Shown one piece after another: positions 29,452-37,138 of a stretch of DNA of 64,000 bases. The notes beneath the pieces are model-generated. The model was not told the DNA's origin. It saw only the letters and a program-made list of their open reading frames with translations, and ran no database searches. A program made the translations under genes and the position numbers. Positions within the stretch are counted from its first letter, which is position 1; every line of letters begins with the position of its first letter. The stretch comes from a virus. The DNA is taken from positions 38,948 to 102,947 of IMG/VR virus record IMGVR_UViG_3300025120_000025; one strand, written 5' to 3'.

Positions 29452-29496
29452 TTCATAAATACTTCTAAGAAGACTACTTTTTTTATTAAAAAGTGC

Positions 29497-29525
29497 TTGA
29501 CAGGTGTGGTAAACTTTGCTATACT
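29497..29525 (+). promoter_or_regulatory. Sigma70-type promoter for the SprT-like operon
   Basis: TGCTTGACA (TTGACA 29497-29502), 17 bases and TATACT (29520-29525). The leader begins ATGATTAGAGAAGAGG at 29532, close to those at 15063 and 17481. A CATAAATA (29454-29461) upstream is one base off the late consensus. Confidence 0.78.
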
Positions 29526-29552
29526 GTAAGCATGATTAGAGAAGAGGTTGAA

Positions 29553-29981
29553 ATGCATATAGTAGAAGTCGTAGGAGGCAACAAAACTCAGCGTAAAATC
29601 GCAGAGAATGTTGTCTTTTATATGATAAAAAAATTGATGCCTCGATTGCGTAATATCGAAATAGAAGTTCAACTGAAAAAGATGAACGAAGATACCGCAG
29701 TGGGTTATTGTATGATGCAAGACAATCGAAGAGAGTATGAGATAGAAGTATCAAAAGATTTATCTATCAAAGATTTTGTAATGACATTGTGCCATGAGAT
29801 GGTACACGTTAAACAGTATGTCCGTAATGAAATGGACGATTGGAATGGTCTAGCAGTTGCACGTTGGAAAAACAAAACTGTTATGCCTGGTACGAATTAT
29901 TACGAACTTCCGTGGGAGAAAGAAGCATATGAATTACAAGCATCTCTTGCGAAAGATTGTTGGAAGAACGATATATTCTAA
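29553..29981 (+). CDS. SprT-like zinc metallopeptidase
   Basis: The 142-residue protein is a minimal SprT/gluzincin-type peptidase. TLCHEMVHVKQYV (about residues 78-90) carries HExxH, and PWEKEAYELQA downstream provides the third metal-ligand region (E-x-x-A-Y). The N-terminal RKIAENVVFYMIKKLMP and the IEVQLKKM strand complete the fold. SprT/Spartan proteins cleave DNA-protein crosslinks, which would suit a phage degrading or repairing DNA, but substrate is inferred. GAAGAGG and five bases precede ATG 29553; an in-frame ATG at 29532 lies at the predicted transcription start. It overlaps the next gene by one base. Confidence 0.82.
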   Translation: MHIVEVVGGNKTQRKIAENVVFYMIKKLMPRLRNIEIEVQLKKMNEDTAVGYCMMQDNRREYEIEVSKDLSIKDFVMTLCHEMVHVKQYVRNEMDDWNGLAVARWKNKTVMPGTNYYELPWEKEAYELQASLAKDCWKNDIF

Positions 29982-31180
29982 TGGCAAATCTTAGTATAAA
30001 CGAAATCACTAGAGACAGTAAAGAGTTCCGTTCAGAGTTACTTGTCGATAAGATATTTGAAGTTGGGGGTAACACACCAAACTTTATGACCGACAACGGA
30101 TTAATGAATGCTACTGCTATCGTCTTGAATGGCGTAAAGTATGTTGTAAGCAATCAATACAAAAATAAGAATTATACACAAGACCTTGCAAACAAAATAC
30201 TTGCAATGAAAGGTCAAGGTAGAAACAACTCTGTAGATATCGTTGGCACTTACGCAGGTAATCCTCGTACAGTTACAATTCCTTTAAGTAAAGTAGAAAA
30301 GTCAGAAGAGTTTGGTGGTCAACCAGCAGGTGGTTCAAAAGAAAATAAAGGTCTAAAGTTTGAAAGAGACTTAACTAATCGTATTGCCGAAATGCTTAGA
30401 GGTGAAAAAGTAGATGGTTCTTTTGCTAACGCCGCTAAACATATTATCGAAGTGACATCAAAAAACATGGGGTCTCCTGCAGTCAGTGTAGAACAACTCG
30501 GTGGTCAAAATCAAAGTAGACCATTTGGTTATGCTGGTGGTAAGATTGTAGTGTTACCTGCAAGACATCAAGAGCATGGTGCAAAACTTACAGATGTAGA
30601 TATCACTCATGCGAATGGTCAGAAATCTCACTTATCACTCAAGTTTGGAGGCACACTGACATTTGTTAATACAGGTGTTGCTGGTGCTGGTAAAGCATTT
30701 CCTAAAGCAGAAGTAGAGAGTGGCACAGTAAAAAATGCTATGGGTGTTGCATTACTTAAAGCATTAGGTATTGATAATCCCTCGTTCTGTAATATCTTCA
30801 ATGCTTTTGGTAAAGGTAAACCTGCAGTCACACCAAACATTGTAGATGTATCAAAAAGTGCAGACAGACAACAACTCAAAGCATTGTTAGCAACTGCTAT
30901 GGGTTCTAATTATTATATGGTTCATGGTAAAGAGAATGGGTCGTTAGACTTCTGGTACATGGATCCGGCAATGGTTGATAGAATGTCAACAATCGCAGGC
31001 GCAATCGAATTAACATACGCTGGTCGTAATGGACTAGCAAAACGTCTAGATATGAGATTCGGAAATTCGTTCTTTGAATTTAAACTAAATATAAGAAACA
31101 AACAATCAGGTGTATATCCTTCTCACTTTCTGATGGACTATACCTCTAAATCAGGTCTAAATAAAACGACACTAAGGTAG
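29981..31180 (+). CDS. Conserved phage protein, possible PD-(D/E)XK nuclease fold
   Basis: The 399-residue protein starts MANLSINEITRDSKEFRSEL. A central segment reads LTDVDITHANGQKSHLSLKFGG (given in part: D-V-D-I, then S-H-L-S-L-K about ten residues later), the spacing of a PD-(D/E)XK nuclease active site. GLKFERDLTNRIAEML upstream could be the usual first helix with Glu. The C-terminal third contains FGNSFFEFKLNIRNKQSG. It is coupled to SprT upstream and followed after three bases by the ligase-like gene. Nuclease assignment is inference from a short motif; a structural role is the alternative. Confidence 0.6.
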   Translation: MANLSINEITRDSKEFRSELLVDKIFEVGGNTPNFMTDNGLMNATAIVLNGVKYVVSNQYKNKNYTQDLANKILAMKGQGRNNSVDIVGTYAGNPRTVTIPLSKVEKSEEFGGQPAGGSKENKGLKFERDLTNRIAEMLRGEKVDGSFANAAKHIIEVTSKNMGSPAVSVEQLGGQNQSRPFGYAGGKIVVLPARHQEHGAKLTDVDITHANGQKSHLSLKFGGTLTFVNTGVAGAGKAFPKAEVESGTVKNAMGVALLKALGIDNPSFCNIFNAFGKGKPAVTPNIVDVSKSADRQQLKALLATAMGSNYYMVHGKENGSLDFWYMDPAMVDRMSTIAGAIELTYAGRNGLAKRLDMRFGNSFFEFKLNIRNKQSGVYPSHFLMDYTSKSGLNKTTLR

Positions 31181-31183
31181 AGA

Positions 31184-32425
31184 ATGTTAAATTTTAAACA
31201 ACAAGTAGAACTAGAAGAAAATCGCAATACGCATTTGACGCACATCGAAGAAACTATCATCACAGATGGTTATGCTGGTGCAGTTAATGCTATTGAGTTT
31301 TTGAAATCTGTAGGCGAAATGCTACAAGGTTCTTCTCGTAGTTCAACAAACATCACAACTAAATGGGATGGCGCACCTGCTATATTCTGTGGGATTGATC
31401 CTGAAGATAAGAAATTCTTTGTTGCAACAAAGTCTGTGTTTAATAAGAGTCCAAAGTTAAATAAAACAAATGCAGACATTCGTAAAAATCATAGTGGTGG
31501 TCTTGTAGAAAAGTTAGAAGTTGCACTAAAAGAACTATCAAAGTTAGGAATCAAAGGTGTCATTCAAGGCGACATGATGTATACTAAAAGCGACTTGAAA
31601 TCAATGTCACATGAAGGTGAGAAATATATTACATTTCAACCTAACACAATCGTATATGCAGTACCAGAAGATGGTCCATTTGGTAAGTTTATCAAGAAAA
31701 CTAACATGGGTATTATCTTTCATACGACATACACCGGTAAGAAATTAGAAGATATGAAAGCATCTTTCAATATAAATATTTCTAAGTTAAGAAAGAGCAA
31801 GTCGATTTGGTTTGATGATGCATCATATAAAGATGTATCTGGTTCAGTAACAATGACTTCAAAAGAAACTGATAAACTTAATGGTTATATCAGTCAAATC
31901 GAGAAGTTATCGAAATCAAACAAGTCTTATCTGAATAAGATGAGTGAAAACTTTGATGAAAAGAACCGTTTCTCTGTCTGGACTAATTATAAAACACACC
32001 TGAACACTTACTTTAGAAGTGAAGGTGATTTTCCTGATGCTACTACAGTTGTTAATGAGTTTAGAACTTATTGGCAAACTAAGATGGATAAAGAGATTGA
32101 TAGTAAAAAAACAGAAGCATCTAAAGAAAAGTATCGTGAGATACTTAAAGATGGTATAAATAAGATTGATAGTGCTAAAACTGAATTAGTATCAGTATCA
32201 GAACTATACGTCAATATTATGGAAGCAAAAAATGTGCTAGTGCAGAAGTTGTCTAAAGTTAAATCTATAGGAACTTTCTTGCGAACAGATGATGGATTAA
32301 AGACTACCGAACCTGAGGGGTTTGTAGCAGTTGATAGAATAAAAGGCAACGCAGTGAAACTCGTAAATCGACTAGAATTCAGTCGTGCGAACTTCACCGC
32401 CGCTAAAAATTGGGTGAGCAAATGA
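31184..32425 (+). CDS. Ligase-superfamily (KxDG) nucleotidyltransferase-like protein
   Basis: The 413-residue protein carries what look like the signature motifs of covalent nucleotidyltransferases (DNA/RNA ligases): motif I TKWDGAPA (K60, D62, G63), a motif III-like GVIQGDMMY (about 125-133), a motif IIIa-like MGIIFHTTYTG, motif IV EGFVAVD (near 379) and motif V AVKLVNR (near 393). An insertion of about 190 residues, rich in lysine and helix, separates III and IV. From memory, similar genes occur in marine T4-like phages as proteins of unknown function. It is ATGA-coupled to a nucleotidyltransferase fusion. A sealing or capping activity is inferred, not shown. Confidence 0.65.
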   Translation: MLNFKQQVELEENRNTHLTHIEETIITDGYAGAVNAIEFLKSVGEMLQGSSRSSTNITTKWDGAPAIFCGIDPEDKKFFVATKSVFNKSPKLNKTNADIRKNHSGGLVEKLEVALKELSKLGIKGVIQGDMMYTKSDLKSMSHEGEKYITFQPNTIVYAVPEDGPFGKFIKKTNMGIIFHTTYTGKKLEDMKASFNINISKLRKSKSIWFDDASYKDVSGSVTMTSKETDKLNGYISQIEKLSKSNKSYLNKMSENFDEKNRFSVWTNYKTHLNTYFRSEGDFPDATTVVNEFRTYWQTKMDKEIDSKKTEASKEKYREILKDGINKIDSAKTELVSVSELYVNIMEAKNVLVQKLSKVKSIGTFLRTDDGLKTTEPEGFVAVDRIKGNAVKLVNRLEFSRANFTAAKNWVSK

Positions 32426-35289
32426 GTTTAAAATTTACAGACCTTTCTAAAAGGTTACAAGAAGCAAAAGACGATACAGTAGTATTTGCATTTGGTCGAT
32501 TTAATCCACCAACTATAGGTCATGCTAAGTTGTTTAAGAAAGTCGAAGCAGAAGGTAAGAATGCGAAAGACCATTTCGTGTTTGGTAGTCACTCTTTCGA
32601 CAATAAGAAAAACCCCTTAAATCCAAAGTTAAAGCAGAAGGTACTTGCGAAAGCATTTCCTAAGTCTAACGTCAAAATCTCCTCGAAACAGACACCTACT
32701 GCACTACACATTGCTTCAATGCTATATGCACAAGGTAAGTATAAGAACCTTGTTATGGTAGCAGGAAGTGACAGAATTCAAGAGTTTCAAACTCTACTAG
32801 ACAAGTACAATGGTAAATCAGGTAGACACGGAGAATATAATTTCGACACTATCAAAGTTGTATCGTCTGGTGAGAGAGATGCAGATGCTACAGATGATAG
32901 TGGTGCATCAGGTACAAAGATGCGTGAATACGCCGCAAGAAATGACTATGAGAGTTTTGCAAAGTATTCCCCACAGACTTTATCAGATAGAGATGTCAAA
33001 TCAATATTCAACGCAGTTCGCAAAGTTATGCCGAAACTTGATAGAGAAGAGTTTGACCCAATCGACAATGTTCGTGAAGATTATCTATTAGGTAACGTAT
33101 TTCAAATAGGCGACCAAGTATTCGATTTGAACGAGAAGAAACAATATAAGATTATTGAACATGGACCAAATTTTGTATACTGTGAAGGAGAAGATGGCAA
33201 TGTATATACCAAGTGGTTATCCGACATTGGGGACATCAGTGAAGTCAGACAAGACAAAGACGTTAAAGATAAAGAAGGTACTCAACCTGCAAAATACTAC
33301 AAAGGACTCGGAAAAGGAACGAAAGACAAACGTGATGCACACTTTAAAAAGGGCGCAAATAAATCCGACAACGATCCCTCTGCTTACGAACCAGCACCTG
33401 GTGATGCAACTGCAAAGACAAAACCTTCAAAGCACACGAAAAAATTCAAGCAAATGTTCGGAGAAGTACGAACAACAGAAGACAAACACTCTAGGTCTGA
33501 TAGTAAATCAGTTAGCGTAGAAGACCTCAATCATTATCCCGGTATGGTAGATGGTGCAAAGTCTAAGAATCCAGATGACTTTGTTGCTGGTGATCCTGAT
33601 GCTGATTATACTGCTCAAGGTTTCGATGGATCGAATGCAAAAGAGATACTTGACAAACTGAACAAACAAGTTGAAAAAGAACGTGGACTTACACTTAAAA
33701 GTTTTATTGATAGACAAGAAATCTTAGAAGGAACACCAGCACAACAAGCGGCGATTGCAATCGCTAAGAAGAAGTCTGGTAAATACGATGAAGATGGTAA
33801 ACGCAAAGACGAAGGATTGTGGGATAACATCAGAAAGAAAAAAGAAAGAATTAAACAAGGTTCTGGCGAAAAGATGAGAAGTAAAGGTGACAAAGGCGCA
33901 CCGACACCTGACCAAATAGCGAGAGCAAGTGAGAGTTATGAAATAGGTAAAGACTATGCAGACCATACAAAAGAAGTAACACCTGGACAGTCTGTAGATG
34001 AAAGAGACTTCAAGACAGATAGAAAACTGAAGAACTTAAAGACGTTCATTGGTAAGTCTTCAGCAGGAGATAGTGCATCTAGAGCAAAGAAAAGAAAAGC
34101 ACAAAGAAGTGGCACATCACTTGCCGCTGGTGTTAAAACTGCAACAAATGCATTTAATCGTCAAATAAGTAAATCACAAAAAATCGCCTCTGATGCCGCC
34201 AGCGAAGAAGTTGAAGAGTGGAACATTGATTTATTTTTAGAAGAAGTAGATGACGCACCAATCAAGAACAATGATGGTGAAGATGAAGATTACGAAGCAT
34301 CATTAGAAAAGATGATTGATGCATACGATGAGTTAGAAGATGTTGCAGATTTATATCCTGATTTAGATAATGATGGTGACCATGATGATGAAGATATGAA
34401 ACTTCAGATAACTAAAGATGCTGAAGAGATGGGTCAAATCGAAGATAACTACAAATGGGTAGATGAAGTACTAACACCAGCACAAAGATTTAAACGTGCC
34501 CAAGCAATGCGTAGAGTAAAAGGTAAGATTGCAAGAGCAAGAATGATTGCCCTAAAGAGACCATCTAGTCCTGAGAAATTAAATCAGAAAGCACAACGTC
34601 ACGCACGAAATTTAATGCGTAAAAAATTCATCAAAGGTCGTAACTATGCAGATTTAAGTTTTGCTGAAAAAGGTGCGATTGAAAAGAGACTACAAGGTAA
34701 GTCAAGTCTTATTGCTCGTATTGCAATGAGAGTGAAACCTAAACTCAAGAAGTTAGAACAACTAAGATTAAAGAATATGAACAAGACAAAAGCACAAAGC
34801 GAAAGCATTGAGTTAGAGTCCGCATTGATTGAGAGTAATCAGTATCGTGTTGGTTCAGAGATGTACTACGAGACTTTCAATGATTGGAAGAATACTGTAG
34901 ACCGGTCAAACTTAGATTACTTTGATAAAGAACTATTAGATTCCGATATAGGATCACACGCATTATATGAAGGTAATCATGTTCCTTTAGATTGTCCTAT
35001 GATGGAAGAAGAGAAACAACCAGAACTAAACAAACCTAAAGCAGGTGGTACGAAGAAGTATTATGTGTATGTAAAAGACCCTAAGTCCGGTAATGTTAAA
35101 AAAGTATCATGGGGCGATACAACAGGTCTCAAGATTAAATTAAATGATCCAGAAGCAAGAAAGTCTTTCGCCGCACGACATAAGTGTGACACTAAGAAAG
35201 ATAAAACGAAACCTGGATATTGGGCGTGTCGTATGCCATACTTTGCAAAGCAGTTAGGATTATCTGGTGGCGGAAACTACTTCTGGTAA
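32422..35289 (+). CDS. Large multidomain protein: N-terminal cytidylyltransferase/NMNAT-like domain fused to virion-type modules
   Basis: The 955-residue protein starts with a HIGH-type nucleotidyltransferase: VFAFGRFNPPTIGHAKLF (TIGH at 31-34), KYKNLVMVAGSDR and SGASGTKMREYAA (about 160-172, ISSTxxR-like). Then follow a small beta module (VFQIGDQVFDLNEKKQYKII), a PAKYYKGLGKGTKDKRDAHF module, a long charged lysine/acid-rich stretch, a basic helical block (KRAQAMRRVKGKIARARM) and a C-terminal ARHKCDTKKDK-x-x-YWACRMPYF motif. The last modules recur, from memory, in structural proteins of marine phages. The ATG at 32422 overlaps the ligase-like stop. Enzyme domain likely; whole-protein role unknown. 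Confidence 0.7.
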   Translation: MSLKFTDLSKRLQEAKDDTVVFAFGRFNPPTIGHAKLFKKVEAEGKNAKDHFVFGSHSFDNKKNPLNPKLKQKVLAKAFPKSNVKISSKQTPTALHIASMLYAQGKYKNLVMVAGSDRIQEFQTLLDKYNGKSGRHGEYNFDTIKVVSSGERDADATDDSGASGTKMREYAARNDYESFAKYSPQTLSDRDVKSIFNAVRKVMPKLDREEFDPIDNVREDYLLGNVFQIGDQVFDLNEKKQYKIIEHGPNFVYCEGEDGNVYTKWLSDIGDISEVRQDKDVKDKEGTQPAKYYKGLGKGTKDKRDAHFKKGANKSDNDPSAYEPAPGDATAKTKPSKHTKKFKQMFGEVRTTEDKHSRSDSKSVSVEDLNHYPGMVDGAKSKNPDDFVAGDPDADYTAQGFDGSNAKEILDKLNKQVEKERGLTLKSFIDRQEILEGTPAQQAAIAIAKKKSGKYDEDGKRKDEGLWDNIRKKKERIKQGSGEKMRSKGDKGAPTPDQIARASESYEIGKDYADHTKEVTPGQSVDERDFKTDRKLKNLKTFIGKSSAGDSASRAKKRKAQRSGTSLAAGVKTATNAFNRQISKSQKIASDAASEEVEEWNIDLFLEEVDDAPIKNNDGEDEDYEASLEKMIDAYDELEDVADLYPDLDNDGDHDDEDMKLQITKDAEEMGQIEDNYKWVDEVLTPAQRFKRAQAMRRVKGKIARARMIALKRPSSPEKLNQKAQRHARNLMRKKFIKGRNYADLSFAEKGAIEKRLQGKSSLIARIAMRVKPKLKKLEQLRLKNMNKTKAQSESIELESALIESNQYRVGSEMYYETFNDWKNTVDRSNLDYFDKELLDSDIGSHALYEGNHVPLDCPMMEEEKQPELNKPKAGGTKKYYVYVKDPKSGNVKKVSWGDTTGLKIKLNDPEARKSFAARHKCDTKKDKTKPGYWACRMPYFAKQLGLSGGGNYFW

Positions 35290-35539
35290 ACCCTACGAAC
35301 AGACTGATGATGTGCGAACTTTTTATAGTACAGTAGCACATCAAGACTTGGTTTGGCATAGAGATAAATACTATAGAGAGATTACTATATTAGAAGGTAA
35401 TGATTGGCAATTACAATTAGATAATGAATTGCCTGTGACACTAGAAAAAGGTAAGATATATCAGATACCAGCAATGGAGTATCACAGAGTAATAAAAGGT
35501 GAAGGCAACCTTAAAATAAAGATTTGGGAAGAGAAATGA
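35267..35539 (+). CDS. Small cupin-like protein
   Basis: A 90-residue single-domain cupin: HQDLVWHRDKYYREITILEG supplies two metal-type histidines and an acidic residue, VTLEKGKIYQIPAMEYHRV the turn and the second-box histidine. The start is GTG at 35267, seven bases after AGGA, overlapping the previous gene by 23 bases. It is coupled (ATGA) to the next gene. Metal binding is probable; reaction unknown. Confidence 0.7.
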   Translation: MAETTSGKPYEQTDDVRTFYSTVAHQDLVWHRDKYYREITILEGNDWQLQLDNELPVTLEKGKIYQIPAMEYHRVIKGEGNLKIKIWEEK

Positions 35540-36084
35540 CAGATATTAGAAAAAGCATGAGAACAGTTCTTGAAGAAATAAATGCTTCATCACTTGACGC
35601 ATTATGCGAAAAGTTAATGGGACTTGAAGAGAACGCAAAAGCATTAAAAAACAAAGCAGATAAGTCTGGTATGCCCTTAGGTATTTTGAAACAAGTATTT
35701 AAGAGAGGCGTTGCCGCTTGGAAAGGCGGACACAGACCAGGAACGAATCCTCAACAATGGGGTCTTGCTAGAGTTAATTCATTTGTCACTAAATCTAGTG
35801 GAACATGGGGTAAAGCAGACGCAGACCTTGCCGCTAAAGTCAAAGGTAAGAGCGAAGAGTTTGTAAAAGAAGACGGACACACTGATGTAGCATCTGCAAA
35901 AAATCAAGTACAGATTGCTATGTCTGCACTAGAAAAGATGCAAACTGAATTAGATAAATTAGGTGAGGAAGAAGAACTACCTACTTGGTGGACTAATAAA
36001 GTCGCAGTAGCAGTAGATAAACTAGATGGTTCTGCGGATTATCTAGACACTAAAGTAGAAAAAAAGGAGAATAACAATGAGTAA
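35536..36084 (+). CDS. Conserved phage virion-type module protein
   Basis: The 182-residue protein contains the segment ALKNKADKSGMPLGILKQVF, GVAAWKGGHRPGTNPQQWG and ARVNSFVTKSSGTWGKADAD. From memory, this module recurs in structural or head-associated proteins of marine phages, often beside or fused to proteins like that at 32422. The C-terminal half is an acidic helix bundle with TWWTNKVAVAVDKLD. ATG 35536 overlaps the cupin stop. Function unknown; likely virion-linked. Confidence 0.7.
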   Translation: MTDIRKSMRTVLEEINASSLDALCEKLMGLEENAKALKNKADKSGMPLGILKQVFKRGVAAWKGGHRPGTNPQQWGLARVNSFVTKSSGTWGKADADLAAKVKGKSEEFVKEDGHTDVASAKNQVQIAMSALEKMQTELDKLGEEEELPTWWTNKVAVAVDKLDGSADYLDTKVEKKENNNE

Positions 36085-36616: not shown

Positions 36617-37138
36617 ATGACATTATCACTAAAACAATTTGAAGCGAGAGGTCAAGCAAGAATATACTTAGACATGGACGGAGTACTTTGTGACTTCATC
36701 AAAGGTGTCAAGGATACGACTGGTATTGACTTCACATCACCTGACTTGAATAGCAAAGAAAAAGGTAAGATTAAGCAACAAATTGAAGATAAAGGTGATT
36801 TCTGGCATAATCTACAATGGCAACCTGGAGGTCAAGAACTTTTCAGATATGTCAAATCTTCTCAACCTCATATTCTATCTGCATATGCTCAGTGGGATAA
36901 AAATTGTCGAGACGGTAAGAAGTCGTGGATAAAGCGATACTTAATGATACCGAAACAACGTATTAATCTTGTTCTTAGAGAAGACAAGCAGAAATACGCT
37001 ACGATAGATGGTGTTCAAAACATATTGATTGATGACTATCTCAAAAACATTAAACAATGGGAAGCAAAAGGTGGTATAGGAATACACCATATCAACGCAC
37101 GAACTAGTATAAATAGTCTAAAGAAACTAGGTTTCTAA
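36617..37138 (+). CDS. HAD-superfamily 5'(3')-deoxyribonucleotidase-like phosphatase
   Basis: The 173-residue protein has HAD motif I YLDMDGVLCDF (D19, D21), motif II-like HILSAYA (Ser), a conserved lysine in the helix K-x-x-W, and motif IV NILIDDYLKNIKQWEAKGG. This is the pattern of small deoxyribonucleotidases, which dephosphorylate nucleoside monophosphates and would adjust nucleotide pools alongside NrdA/B and MazG. The first ten residues, LSLKQFEA, resemble leader segments of phage structural proteins. A late promoter for the next gene lies inside its 3' end. Confidence 0.78.
   Translation: MTLSLKQFEARGQARIYLDMDGVLCDFIKGVKDTTGIDFTSPDLNSKEKGKIKQQIEDKGDFWHNLQWQPGGQELFRYVKSSQPHILSAYAQWDKNCRDGKKSWIKRYLMIPKQRINLVLREDKQKYATIDGVQNILIDDYLKNIKQWEAKGGIGIHHINARTSINSLKKLGF
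37108..37115 (+). promoter_or_regulatory. T4-type late promoter (TATAAATA)
   Basis: Exact TATAAATA followed by G, within the 3' end of the HAD gene and 49 bases before the ATG at 37165 of a structural gene. AAAGGAG lies close to that ATG. Confidence 0.75.

What the first reader, a model, noticed from the sequence alone, without database searches (positions are those of the whole stretch)
31184..35289. Ligase-like KWDG protein coupled to a TIGH nucleotidyltransferase fused to virion-type modules
The 413-residue protein carries motif I KWDG plus plausible motifs III, IV (EGFV) and V (KLVN) of covalent nucleotidyltransferases, with a large insertion between III and IV. Its stop overlaps the start of a 955-residue protein with an NMNAT/cytidylyltransferase domain (TIGH; GTKMRE) followed by modules otherwise seen in phage structural proteins. 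A SprT-like peptidase and a nuclease-like protein sit just upstream. The group could be a nucleic-acid end-processing or repair system, possibly carried in the virion.
Basis: inference. Interest (0 to 1): 0.72.

Follow-up and report, generated by a model that had tools for sequence, protein, structure and literature searches.

The report
Hidden ligase-like enzyme in ocean phages
A gene of unknown function carried by almost every T4-like ocean cyanophage looks like a very divergent enzyme of the DNA/RNA-ligase superfamily, usually paired or fused with an NMNAT-like enzyme that other groups have already found in phage particles; it could be the ligase these phages otherwise seem to lack.

Summary
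ORF 31184-32425 (413 aa) is Pfam DUF6267, a family I found in no paper. Its stop overlaps the start (ATGA) of a 955-aa protein whose first ~205 residues are an NMNAT-like nucleotidylyltransferase. K60, D62, G63, D130, E378, G379 and K392 are invariant in alignments of 58 and 96 homologues. AlphaFold models are confident (pLDDT 90-92). For a short natural homologue, 39 of the 50 best PDB matches are DNA ligases, RNA ligases or capping enzymes. Each match is individually weak (best E 0.085) and profile-profile comparison is not significant, so DUF6267 is at best a very divergent member. In 213 of 258 loci with room to judge, the NMNAT-like domain is fused to it or lies just downstream. DUF6267 is near-universal in T4-like cyanophages (371 Synechococcus-phage records against 375 with UvsX), and 8 of 9 complete carriers have no recognisable DNA ligase. 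Published proteomics detected the NMNAT-like partner in virions of several cyanophages; DUF6267 is absent from the S-SZBM1 virion list. Best guess: a lysyl-nucleotide end-joining enzyme of the replication module. The activity is unproven.

The parts
31184..32425 (+). DUF6267 protein, 413 aa: proposed covalent nucleotidyltransferase (ligase superfamily). N-terminal HxxHxE segment (residues 17-22); motif I KWDG (60-63); K83; QGD (128-130); F-x-P-N-x-x-x-Y (151-158); helical insertion (~226-357); motif IV EGFV (378-381); motif V KLVNR (392-396)
   Evidence: Pfam DUF6267 E 1.9e-116; invariant residues; AlphaFold pLDDT 89.7; short homologue pLDDT 92 and PDB matches
31361..31372 (+). Codons for K60-W-D-G63, the proposed nucleotide-accepting lysine and motif I
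   Evidence: Positions; K, D and G invariant
31565..31573 (+). Codons for Q128-G129-D130, proposed counterpart of the (D)GE motif of ligases
   Evidence: Q and D invariant, G or A in the middle; assignment to the ligase motif is inference
32315..32371 (+). Codons for E378 to R396: proposed motifs IV (EGFV) and V (KLVNR)
   Evidence: E378, G379, V381, K392, V394, R396 invariant; this stretch alone aligns to T4 RNA ligase 1 motifs IV/V in profile comparison (E 0.031)
32422..35289 (+). 955-aa NMNAT-like protein; start overlaps the DUF6267 stop (ATGA)
   Evidence: CTP_transf_like 1.3e-5 at residues 23-168; phrog_3041 1.1e-77 and phrog_395 1.4e-49, both cytidyltransferase; TIGR00482 3.8e-4
32491..32928 (+). 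Stretch bounded by the catalytic signatures of the NMNAT-like domain: FGRFNPPTIGH and SGTKMRE
   Evidence: Located; FNPPT[VIT]GH is the prevalent form in relatives
33286..35289 (+). C-terminal extension (about residues 289-955): weak DUF5824-like module, phrog_16028, phrog_23027 and phrog_7595 modules; lineage-specific
   Evidence: many relatives have only ~200 aa of NMNAT-like domain
35524..36084 (+). DUF5824 protein; in phrog_3041 members this module is fused to the NMNAT-like domain
   Evidence: Pfam DUF5824 1.3e-15; phrog_3041 positions 579-678, 4.5e-27
29957..31180 (+). Upstream 407-aa protein (phrog_8438, unknown function); one D-x(14)-SLK stretch that could be a PD-(D/E)xK-like nuclease motif, untested
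   Evidence: conserved only in the close relatives and S-CAM1 type
29493..29981 (+). SprT-like metallopeptidase candidate with HEMVH; accessory, not part of the conserved pair
   Evidence: SprT-like 6.2e-5, below cut-off; found in 31 ORFs of the loci then held, nearly all close relatives

Best explanation
The 413-aa protein (DUF6267) is a very divergent covalent nucleotidyltransferase. K60 attacks an ATP (or NAD+) alpha-phosphate to form a lysyl-nucleotide, which is passed to a nucleic-acid end and used for joining. It sits in the replication module (DNA polymerase, UvsX and helicase before it; primase and NrdA after it) of marine T4-like phages that mostly lack a recognisable DNA ligase, so its most likely job is sealing phage DNA (Okazaki nicks or recombination joints), with RNA joining as second choice. 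The adjacent or fused NMNAT-like protein makes a nucleotide cofactor, most likely NAD, and in several cyanophages is also carried in the particle. Shown: the genes, the conserved motifs, the trend of the predicted fold, the linkage, the lack of other ligases in most carriers examined, and published virion detection of the partner. Inferred: catalysis, substrate, and any functional coupling.
For: Invariant K60, D62, G63, D130, E378, G379, K392 and R396. Confident models. 39 of the 50 best PDB matches of the short homologue are ATP- or NAD-dependent DNA ligases, RNA ligases (Naegleria, trypanosome REL1) or capping enzymes. Replication-module context in the window and in annotated relatives. DUF6267 near-universal in T4-like cyanophages. 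No PF01068 or PF01653 ligase in 8 of 9 complete carriers, while T4's gp30 is found by the same search and T4 has no credible DUF6267. Natural fusions with the NMNAT-like domain.
Against: No individual structural match reaches significance (best E 0.085), and the full-length model gave mainly spurious helical matches. Profile-profile comparison with T4 Rnl1, Rnl2, DNA ligases and NAD ligases is not significant, while known ligase pairs scored down to 5.5e-6. The second motif V lysine is absent and there is almost nothing after motif V, so no OB-fold or motif VI. Stenotrophomonas phage DLP6 carries both DUF6267 and a DNA ligase, so it is not a simple replacement. The host's own ligase could serve the phage.
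Confidence: 0.5

Rival explanations
1. DUF6267 is an RNA-directed enzyme: an RNA ligase that repairs tRNA or mRNA cut by host defences, or an RNA 5'-end modifier, with the NMNAT-like protein supplying NAD for metabolism or RNA capping.
For: RNA ligases and capping enzymes are among the structural matches. The only profile alignment that lines up motifs falls on T4 Rnl1 motifs IV/V, and one of 96 homologues hits PF09511 RNA_lig_T4_1 at E 0.017. No OB-fold after motif V.
Against: No PF09414 RNA ligase relationship. Position in the DNA replication module. No polynucleotide kinase partner was recognised beside it in the neighbourhoods examined.
Confidence: 0.22
2. DUF6267 uses NAD+ as nucleotide donor and releases NMN, and the paired NMNAT-like enzyme regenerates NAD+ from NMN and ATP, giving a self-sustaining two-enzyme cycle. 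The invariant N-terminal HxxHxE would play the role that domain Ia plays in bacterial LigA.
For: Fusion or close linkage with an NMNAT-like domain. Best named family for the partner is NMNAT, TIGR00482. LigA adenylation domains are among the matches. H17, H20 and E22 show no substitution in 58 homologues, only gaps in one or two. That LigA releases NMN and NMNAT consumes it is established knowledge.
Against: No significant similarity to LigA. A clade with DUF6267 and no nearby NMNAT exists, and a 131-kb record of it (L074) has no phrog_395 match. In S-SZBM1 the NMNAT-like protein was detected in the virion but DUF6267 was not. The role of HxxHxE is guesswork.
Confidence: 0.12
3. The fold is nucleotidyltransferase-like, but the enzyme transfers a nucleotide to a protein or small molecule, or is a non-catalytic assembly factor, and the pair serves virion assembly or host take-over.
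For: The partner is found in virions. Several invariant residues (H180, Y183, F399, N403) have no counterpart in ligases that I could assign.
Against: Complete invariance of the catalytic motif residues argues against a scaffold. Location among replication genes.
Confidence: 0.11
4. The resemblance to ligases is superficial (convergent motifs in an unrelated fold).
For: Weak individual E-values and no significant profile match.
Against: Non-ligase matches in the top 50 are scattered among unrelated folds, while ligases, RNA ligases and capping enzymes make up 39 of 50. Motifs lie in the expected order on the expected strands.
Confidence: 0.05

Closest known systems
Pfam PF19782, DUF6267
   Same: The 413-aa protein is a clear member (E 1.9e-116)
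   Different: Nothing; the family has no assigned function and no paper in the held library names it
Covalent nucleotidyltransferase superfamily (ATP- and NAD-dependent DNA ligases, RNA ligases, mRNA capping enzymes)
   Same: Ordered KxDG, a GD counterpart of the GE motif, EGxV and K motifs; the superfamily dominates the structural matches
   Different: No significant sequence or profile match, QGD for GE, no second motif V lysine, helical insertion of ~130 residues, N-terminal HxxHxE, no C-terminal OB domain
T4 RNA ligase 1 (RnlA, PF09511)
   Same: Short motif IV/V similarity, EGYVAVMKDGSHFKIK against EGFVAVDRIKGNAVKLV
   Different: The rest does not align; E 0.031 only
T4 gp30 ATP-dependent DNA ligase
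   Same: Possible same role in the replisome of T4-like phages
   Different: Not related by Pfam PF01068; found in T4, where DUF6267 is absent
Cyanophage cytidyltransferase/NMNAT-like core protein T4-GC190, detected in virions
   Same: The N-terminal ~270 residues of the 955-aa protein match its P-SSM2 and S-SZBM1 orthologues at 29-32% identity
   Different: Here it carries ~670 extra residues of lineage-specific modules

Membership tests
Pfam DUF6267 | Match to the family profile over its curated cut-off | tested here: met
   389.9 bits against a 27-bit cut-off, profile positions 1-376 of 376
Covalent nucleotidyltransferase superfamily | Invariant motif I KxDG | tested here: met
   K60, D62, G63 invariant in 96 and 58 sequences; one degenerate relative reads KYNG (L199)
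Covalent nucleotidyltransferase superfamily | Motif IV EGxV and motif V lysine | tested here: met
   E378, G379, V381, K392 invariant
Covalent nucleotidyltransferase superfamily | Second lysine of motif V (KxK) | tested here: not met
   V394 invariant at that place; R396 invariant nearby
Covalent nucleotidyltransferase superfamily | Nucleotidyltransferase fold | tested here: inconclusive
   39 of 50 best PDB matches belong to it, but none is significant alone; full-length model uninformative
Covalent nucleotidyltransferase superfamily | Lysyl-NMP adduct at the motif I lysine | not testable with these tools
   Needs biochemistry
ATP-dependent DNA ligase (PF01068) | Match to the family profile and C-terminal OB domain with motif VI | tested here: not met
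   No Pfam match; only about 17 residues after motif V
NAD-dependent DNA ligase (PF01653) | Match to the adenylation-domain profile | tested here: not met
   No match in any of 9 carrier genomes; profile comparison E 0.098
T4 Rnl2-like RNA ligase (PF09414) | Match to the family profile | tested here: not met
T4 Rnl1 RNA ligase (PF09511) | Match to the family profile | tested here: not met
   One of 96 members at E 0.017; profile comparison E 0.031 over 22 columns
NMNAT / CTP_transf_like (955-aa protein, N-terminus) | (T/H)xGH and SGTxxR-type signatures with the family profile | tested here: met
   FNPPTIGH and SGTKMRE; CTP_transf_like 25.9 bits against a 21-bit cut-off; TIGR00482 below its cut-off
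NMNAT / CTP_transf_like (955-aa protein, N-terminus) | NMN adenylyltransferase activity rather than another nucleotidyl transfer | not testable with these tools
   The substrate cannot be read from these data

The most novel reading that the evidence does not exclude
DUF6267 is the missing replicative ligase of marine T4-like phages, powered by NAD+, and its fused or adjacent NMNAT partner turns the released NMN back into NAD+ on the spot: a ligase with a built-in cofactor-recycling partner, a combination I know of in no described ligase.
Probability: 0.1. Interest if true: 0.88.

Novelty: new variant of a known kind. Interest (0 to 1): 0.62.

Why it matters
T4-like cyanophages and their pelagiphage relatives are among the most abundant myoviruses in the sea, and DUF6267 is present in nearly all sequenced T4-like cyanophages yet has no assigned function. 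If it is a nucleic-acid joining enzyme, it fills an apparent gap: eight of nine complete carrier genomes examined encode no recognisable DNA ligase. It would also extend the ligase superfamily beyond the reach of present profile searches, and it would suggest a reason for the puzzling NMNAT-like protein that several groups have found in cyanophage particles.

Tried and rejected
Full-length model against PDB: top matches are spurious helical alignments caused by the insertion; replaced by a short natural homologue. Full-length model against viral models: own family first, then isolated weak RNA/DNA ligases. Sequence profile against PDB sequences: only helical noise. Profile-profile comparison with the ligase sets: not significant, though several known ligase pairs did better. 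Scan of 96 homologues against Pfam: DUF6267 in all, otherwise scattered noise. Upstream genes as a conserved nuclease partner: several unrelated-looking families, except that HTVC008M and Melnitz types match each other and are weakly like DLP6's. P-SSM2 'tRNA ligase' as an RNA ligase lead: it matches class II aminoacyl-tRNA synthetases instead. Cellular homologues: genome-collection hits carry mostly MAG titles and I read them as phage contigs, without testing each. Papers naming DUF6267 or DUF5824: none held.
Full report
What is there. The window is bases 38948-102947 of a 102,947-base virus record and carries a marine T4-like phage replication module: clamp (19391), clamp loader (20071), DNA polymerase (23710), UvsX (26569), helicase (27837), then the cassette in question, then primase (42690) and NrdA (44793). 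ORF 31184-32425 encodes 413 aa. Its TGA stop overlaps the ATG at 32422 that opens a 955-aa protein. The first is Pfam DUF6267 (E 1.9e-116). The second begins with a CTP_transf_like domain whose closest named equivalog is NMNAT, though below that model's cut-off.

Conservation. Relatives were collected from viral contigs, annotated phages and genome contigs. In an alignment of 96 homologues K60, D62, G63, Q128, G129, D130, P153, N154, Y158, E378, G379, V381, K392 and R396 are among the invariant columns. In a second alignment of 58 that mixes natural short forms with long ones, all of these stay invariant except G129, which is G or A. Among 350 related ORFs collected by script, four of more than 250 aa lacked KxDG: two start inside a truncated contig, one is the C-terminal half of a split gene, and one (L199) is degenerate, reading KYNG.

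Fold. AlphaFold on the 96-row alignment gave mean pLDDT 89.7 and pTM 0.85, with a strand ending at K60, a strand after WDG, and the EGFV and KLV strands after a helical insertion. Against PDB this full-length model produced no match at E <= 0.001; the list was led by spurious helical alignments, with one DNA ligase at rank 20. A 298-aa natural short form (pLDDT 92.0, pTM 0.87) gave a different picture. By my count of the printed table, 39 of the 50 best matches are covalent nucleotidyltransferases: archaeal and human ATP-dependent DNA ligases, NAD-dependent ligases, Naegleria RNA ligase, trypanosome RNA editing ligase and capping enzymes. Two of the 39 (7lsy_Y, 9n82_F) are counted as ligase IV from the entry description and chain length. 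No match is significant alone (best E 0.085), and many hits are the same protein, so this is enrichment evidence rather than a formal family assignment. Profile-profile comparison is not significant: the best is 22 columns of motif IV/V with T4 Rnl1 at E 0.031, against 5.5e-6 for the best known ligase pair in the same test; some known ligase pairs also failed that test, so it has limited power.

Partner. Among 258 DUF6267 loci with at least 1.5 kb downstream (or fused), 8 are fused to the NMNAT-like domain and 205 have it downstream on the same strand within 4.5 kb, 61 of them overlapping. PHROG 455 is itself a fused DUF6267-cytidyltransferase family. These loci are not independent. The other 45 loci show no partner in that span; a 131-kb record of that kind (L074) has no phrog_395 match, though it may be incomplete. 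In P-SSM2 the two genes lie about 100 kb apart in the record.

Phylogenetic pattern. tblastn finds DUF6267 in 371 Synechococcus-, 61 Cyanophage- and 24 Prochlorococcus-named records, against 375 and 61 for UvsX and 374, 61 and 24 for the cytidyltransferase. Nine complete carriers and T4 were searched for ligases. PF01068 is found in T4 and DLP6 only, PF01653 in none, PF09414 in T4 only. DUF6267 is in all nine carriers; the T4 match (E 0.003, one stop inside) I read as noise. T4 gp30 tblastn lists no Synechococcus phages among its ten commonest names, the tenth of which has 53 records, so most T4-like cyanophages have no gp30 detectable this way; exact numbers were not printed. A review notes that many genes of the group that includes gp30 are absent from one or more cyanophages (PMC2993671).

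Virion link. Published mass spectrometry detected the cytidyltransferase/NMNAT-like protein in purified virions of S-SM1, as T4-GC190 (PMC3037559), S-SZBM1 (PMC9146016), S-SCSM1 (PMC9602691) and S-CREM2 (PMC10665884); PMC9602691 and PMC10665884 also report it for S-CBWM1 from an earlier paper. The authors themselves note that such proteins may be highly expressed carry-over. In S-SZBM1 the DUF6267 gene is 141, and it is absent from the list that holds 140 and 139. In S-SM1 it is T4-GC 71, next to T4-GC190; that paper's supplementary table was not read. Virion carriage is therefore supported for the partner and unsupported for DUF6267.

Surroundings. The C-terminal extension of the 955-aa protein is modular. 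Parts recur in Melnitz, HTVC008M and DLP6 proteins, and short modules recur in marine podo- and siphoviruses, mostly as hypothetical proteins, with a 'putative scaffolding protein' label overlapping in three related Pelagibacter phages. The SprT-like gene and phrog_8438 protein upstream belong mainly to the window's clade.

Verdict. I put the nucleotidyltransferase fold at about 0.85, nucleic-acid joining at about 0.7 (DNA more likely than RNA), and an NAD+-recycling coupling at about 0.1. These are my estimates, not computed values.

Noticed in passing
L214:4449-5748, L215:4866-6165, L217:1553-2732, L220:3-1086, L218:106-1962: DUF6267 is split into two ORFs between the QGD and FTPN motifs, overlapping by 5 bases in most and separated by about 650 bases in L218; the halves keep their motifs.
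   Followed up: partly
L199:5001-6059: A degenerate DUF6267 relative reads KYNG instead of KxDG and has lost the QGD motif; it may be an inactive copy.
   Followed up: no
L051-L074 clade: DUF6267 without a nearby NMNAT-like gene; the 131-kb record holding L074 has no phrog_395 match.
   Followed up: partly
window 35524-36084: DUF5824 protein that in other phages is fused to the NMNAT-like domain; no paper in the library names DUF5824.
   Followed up: partly
window 36617-37138: 5'-deoxynucleotidase-like protein (NT5C, E 9.5e-7) just downstream.
   Followed up: no
L083:10780-11583 (PSSM2_198): Annotated 'tRNA ligase'; matches class II aminoacyl-tRNA synthetases rather than RNA ligases.
   Followed up: partly
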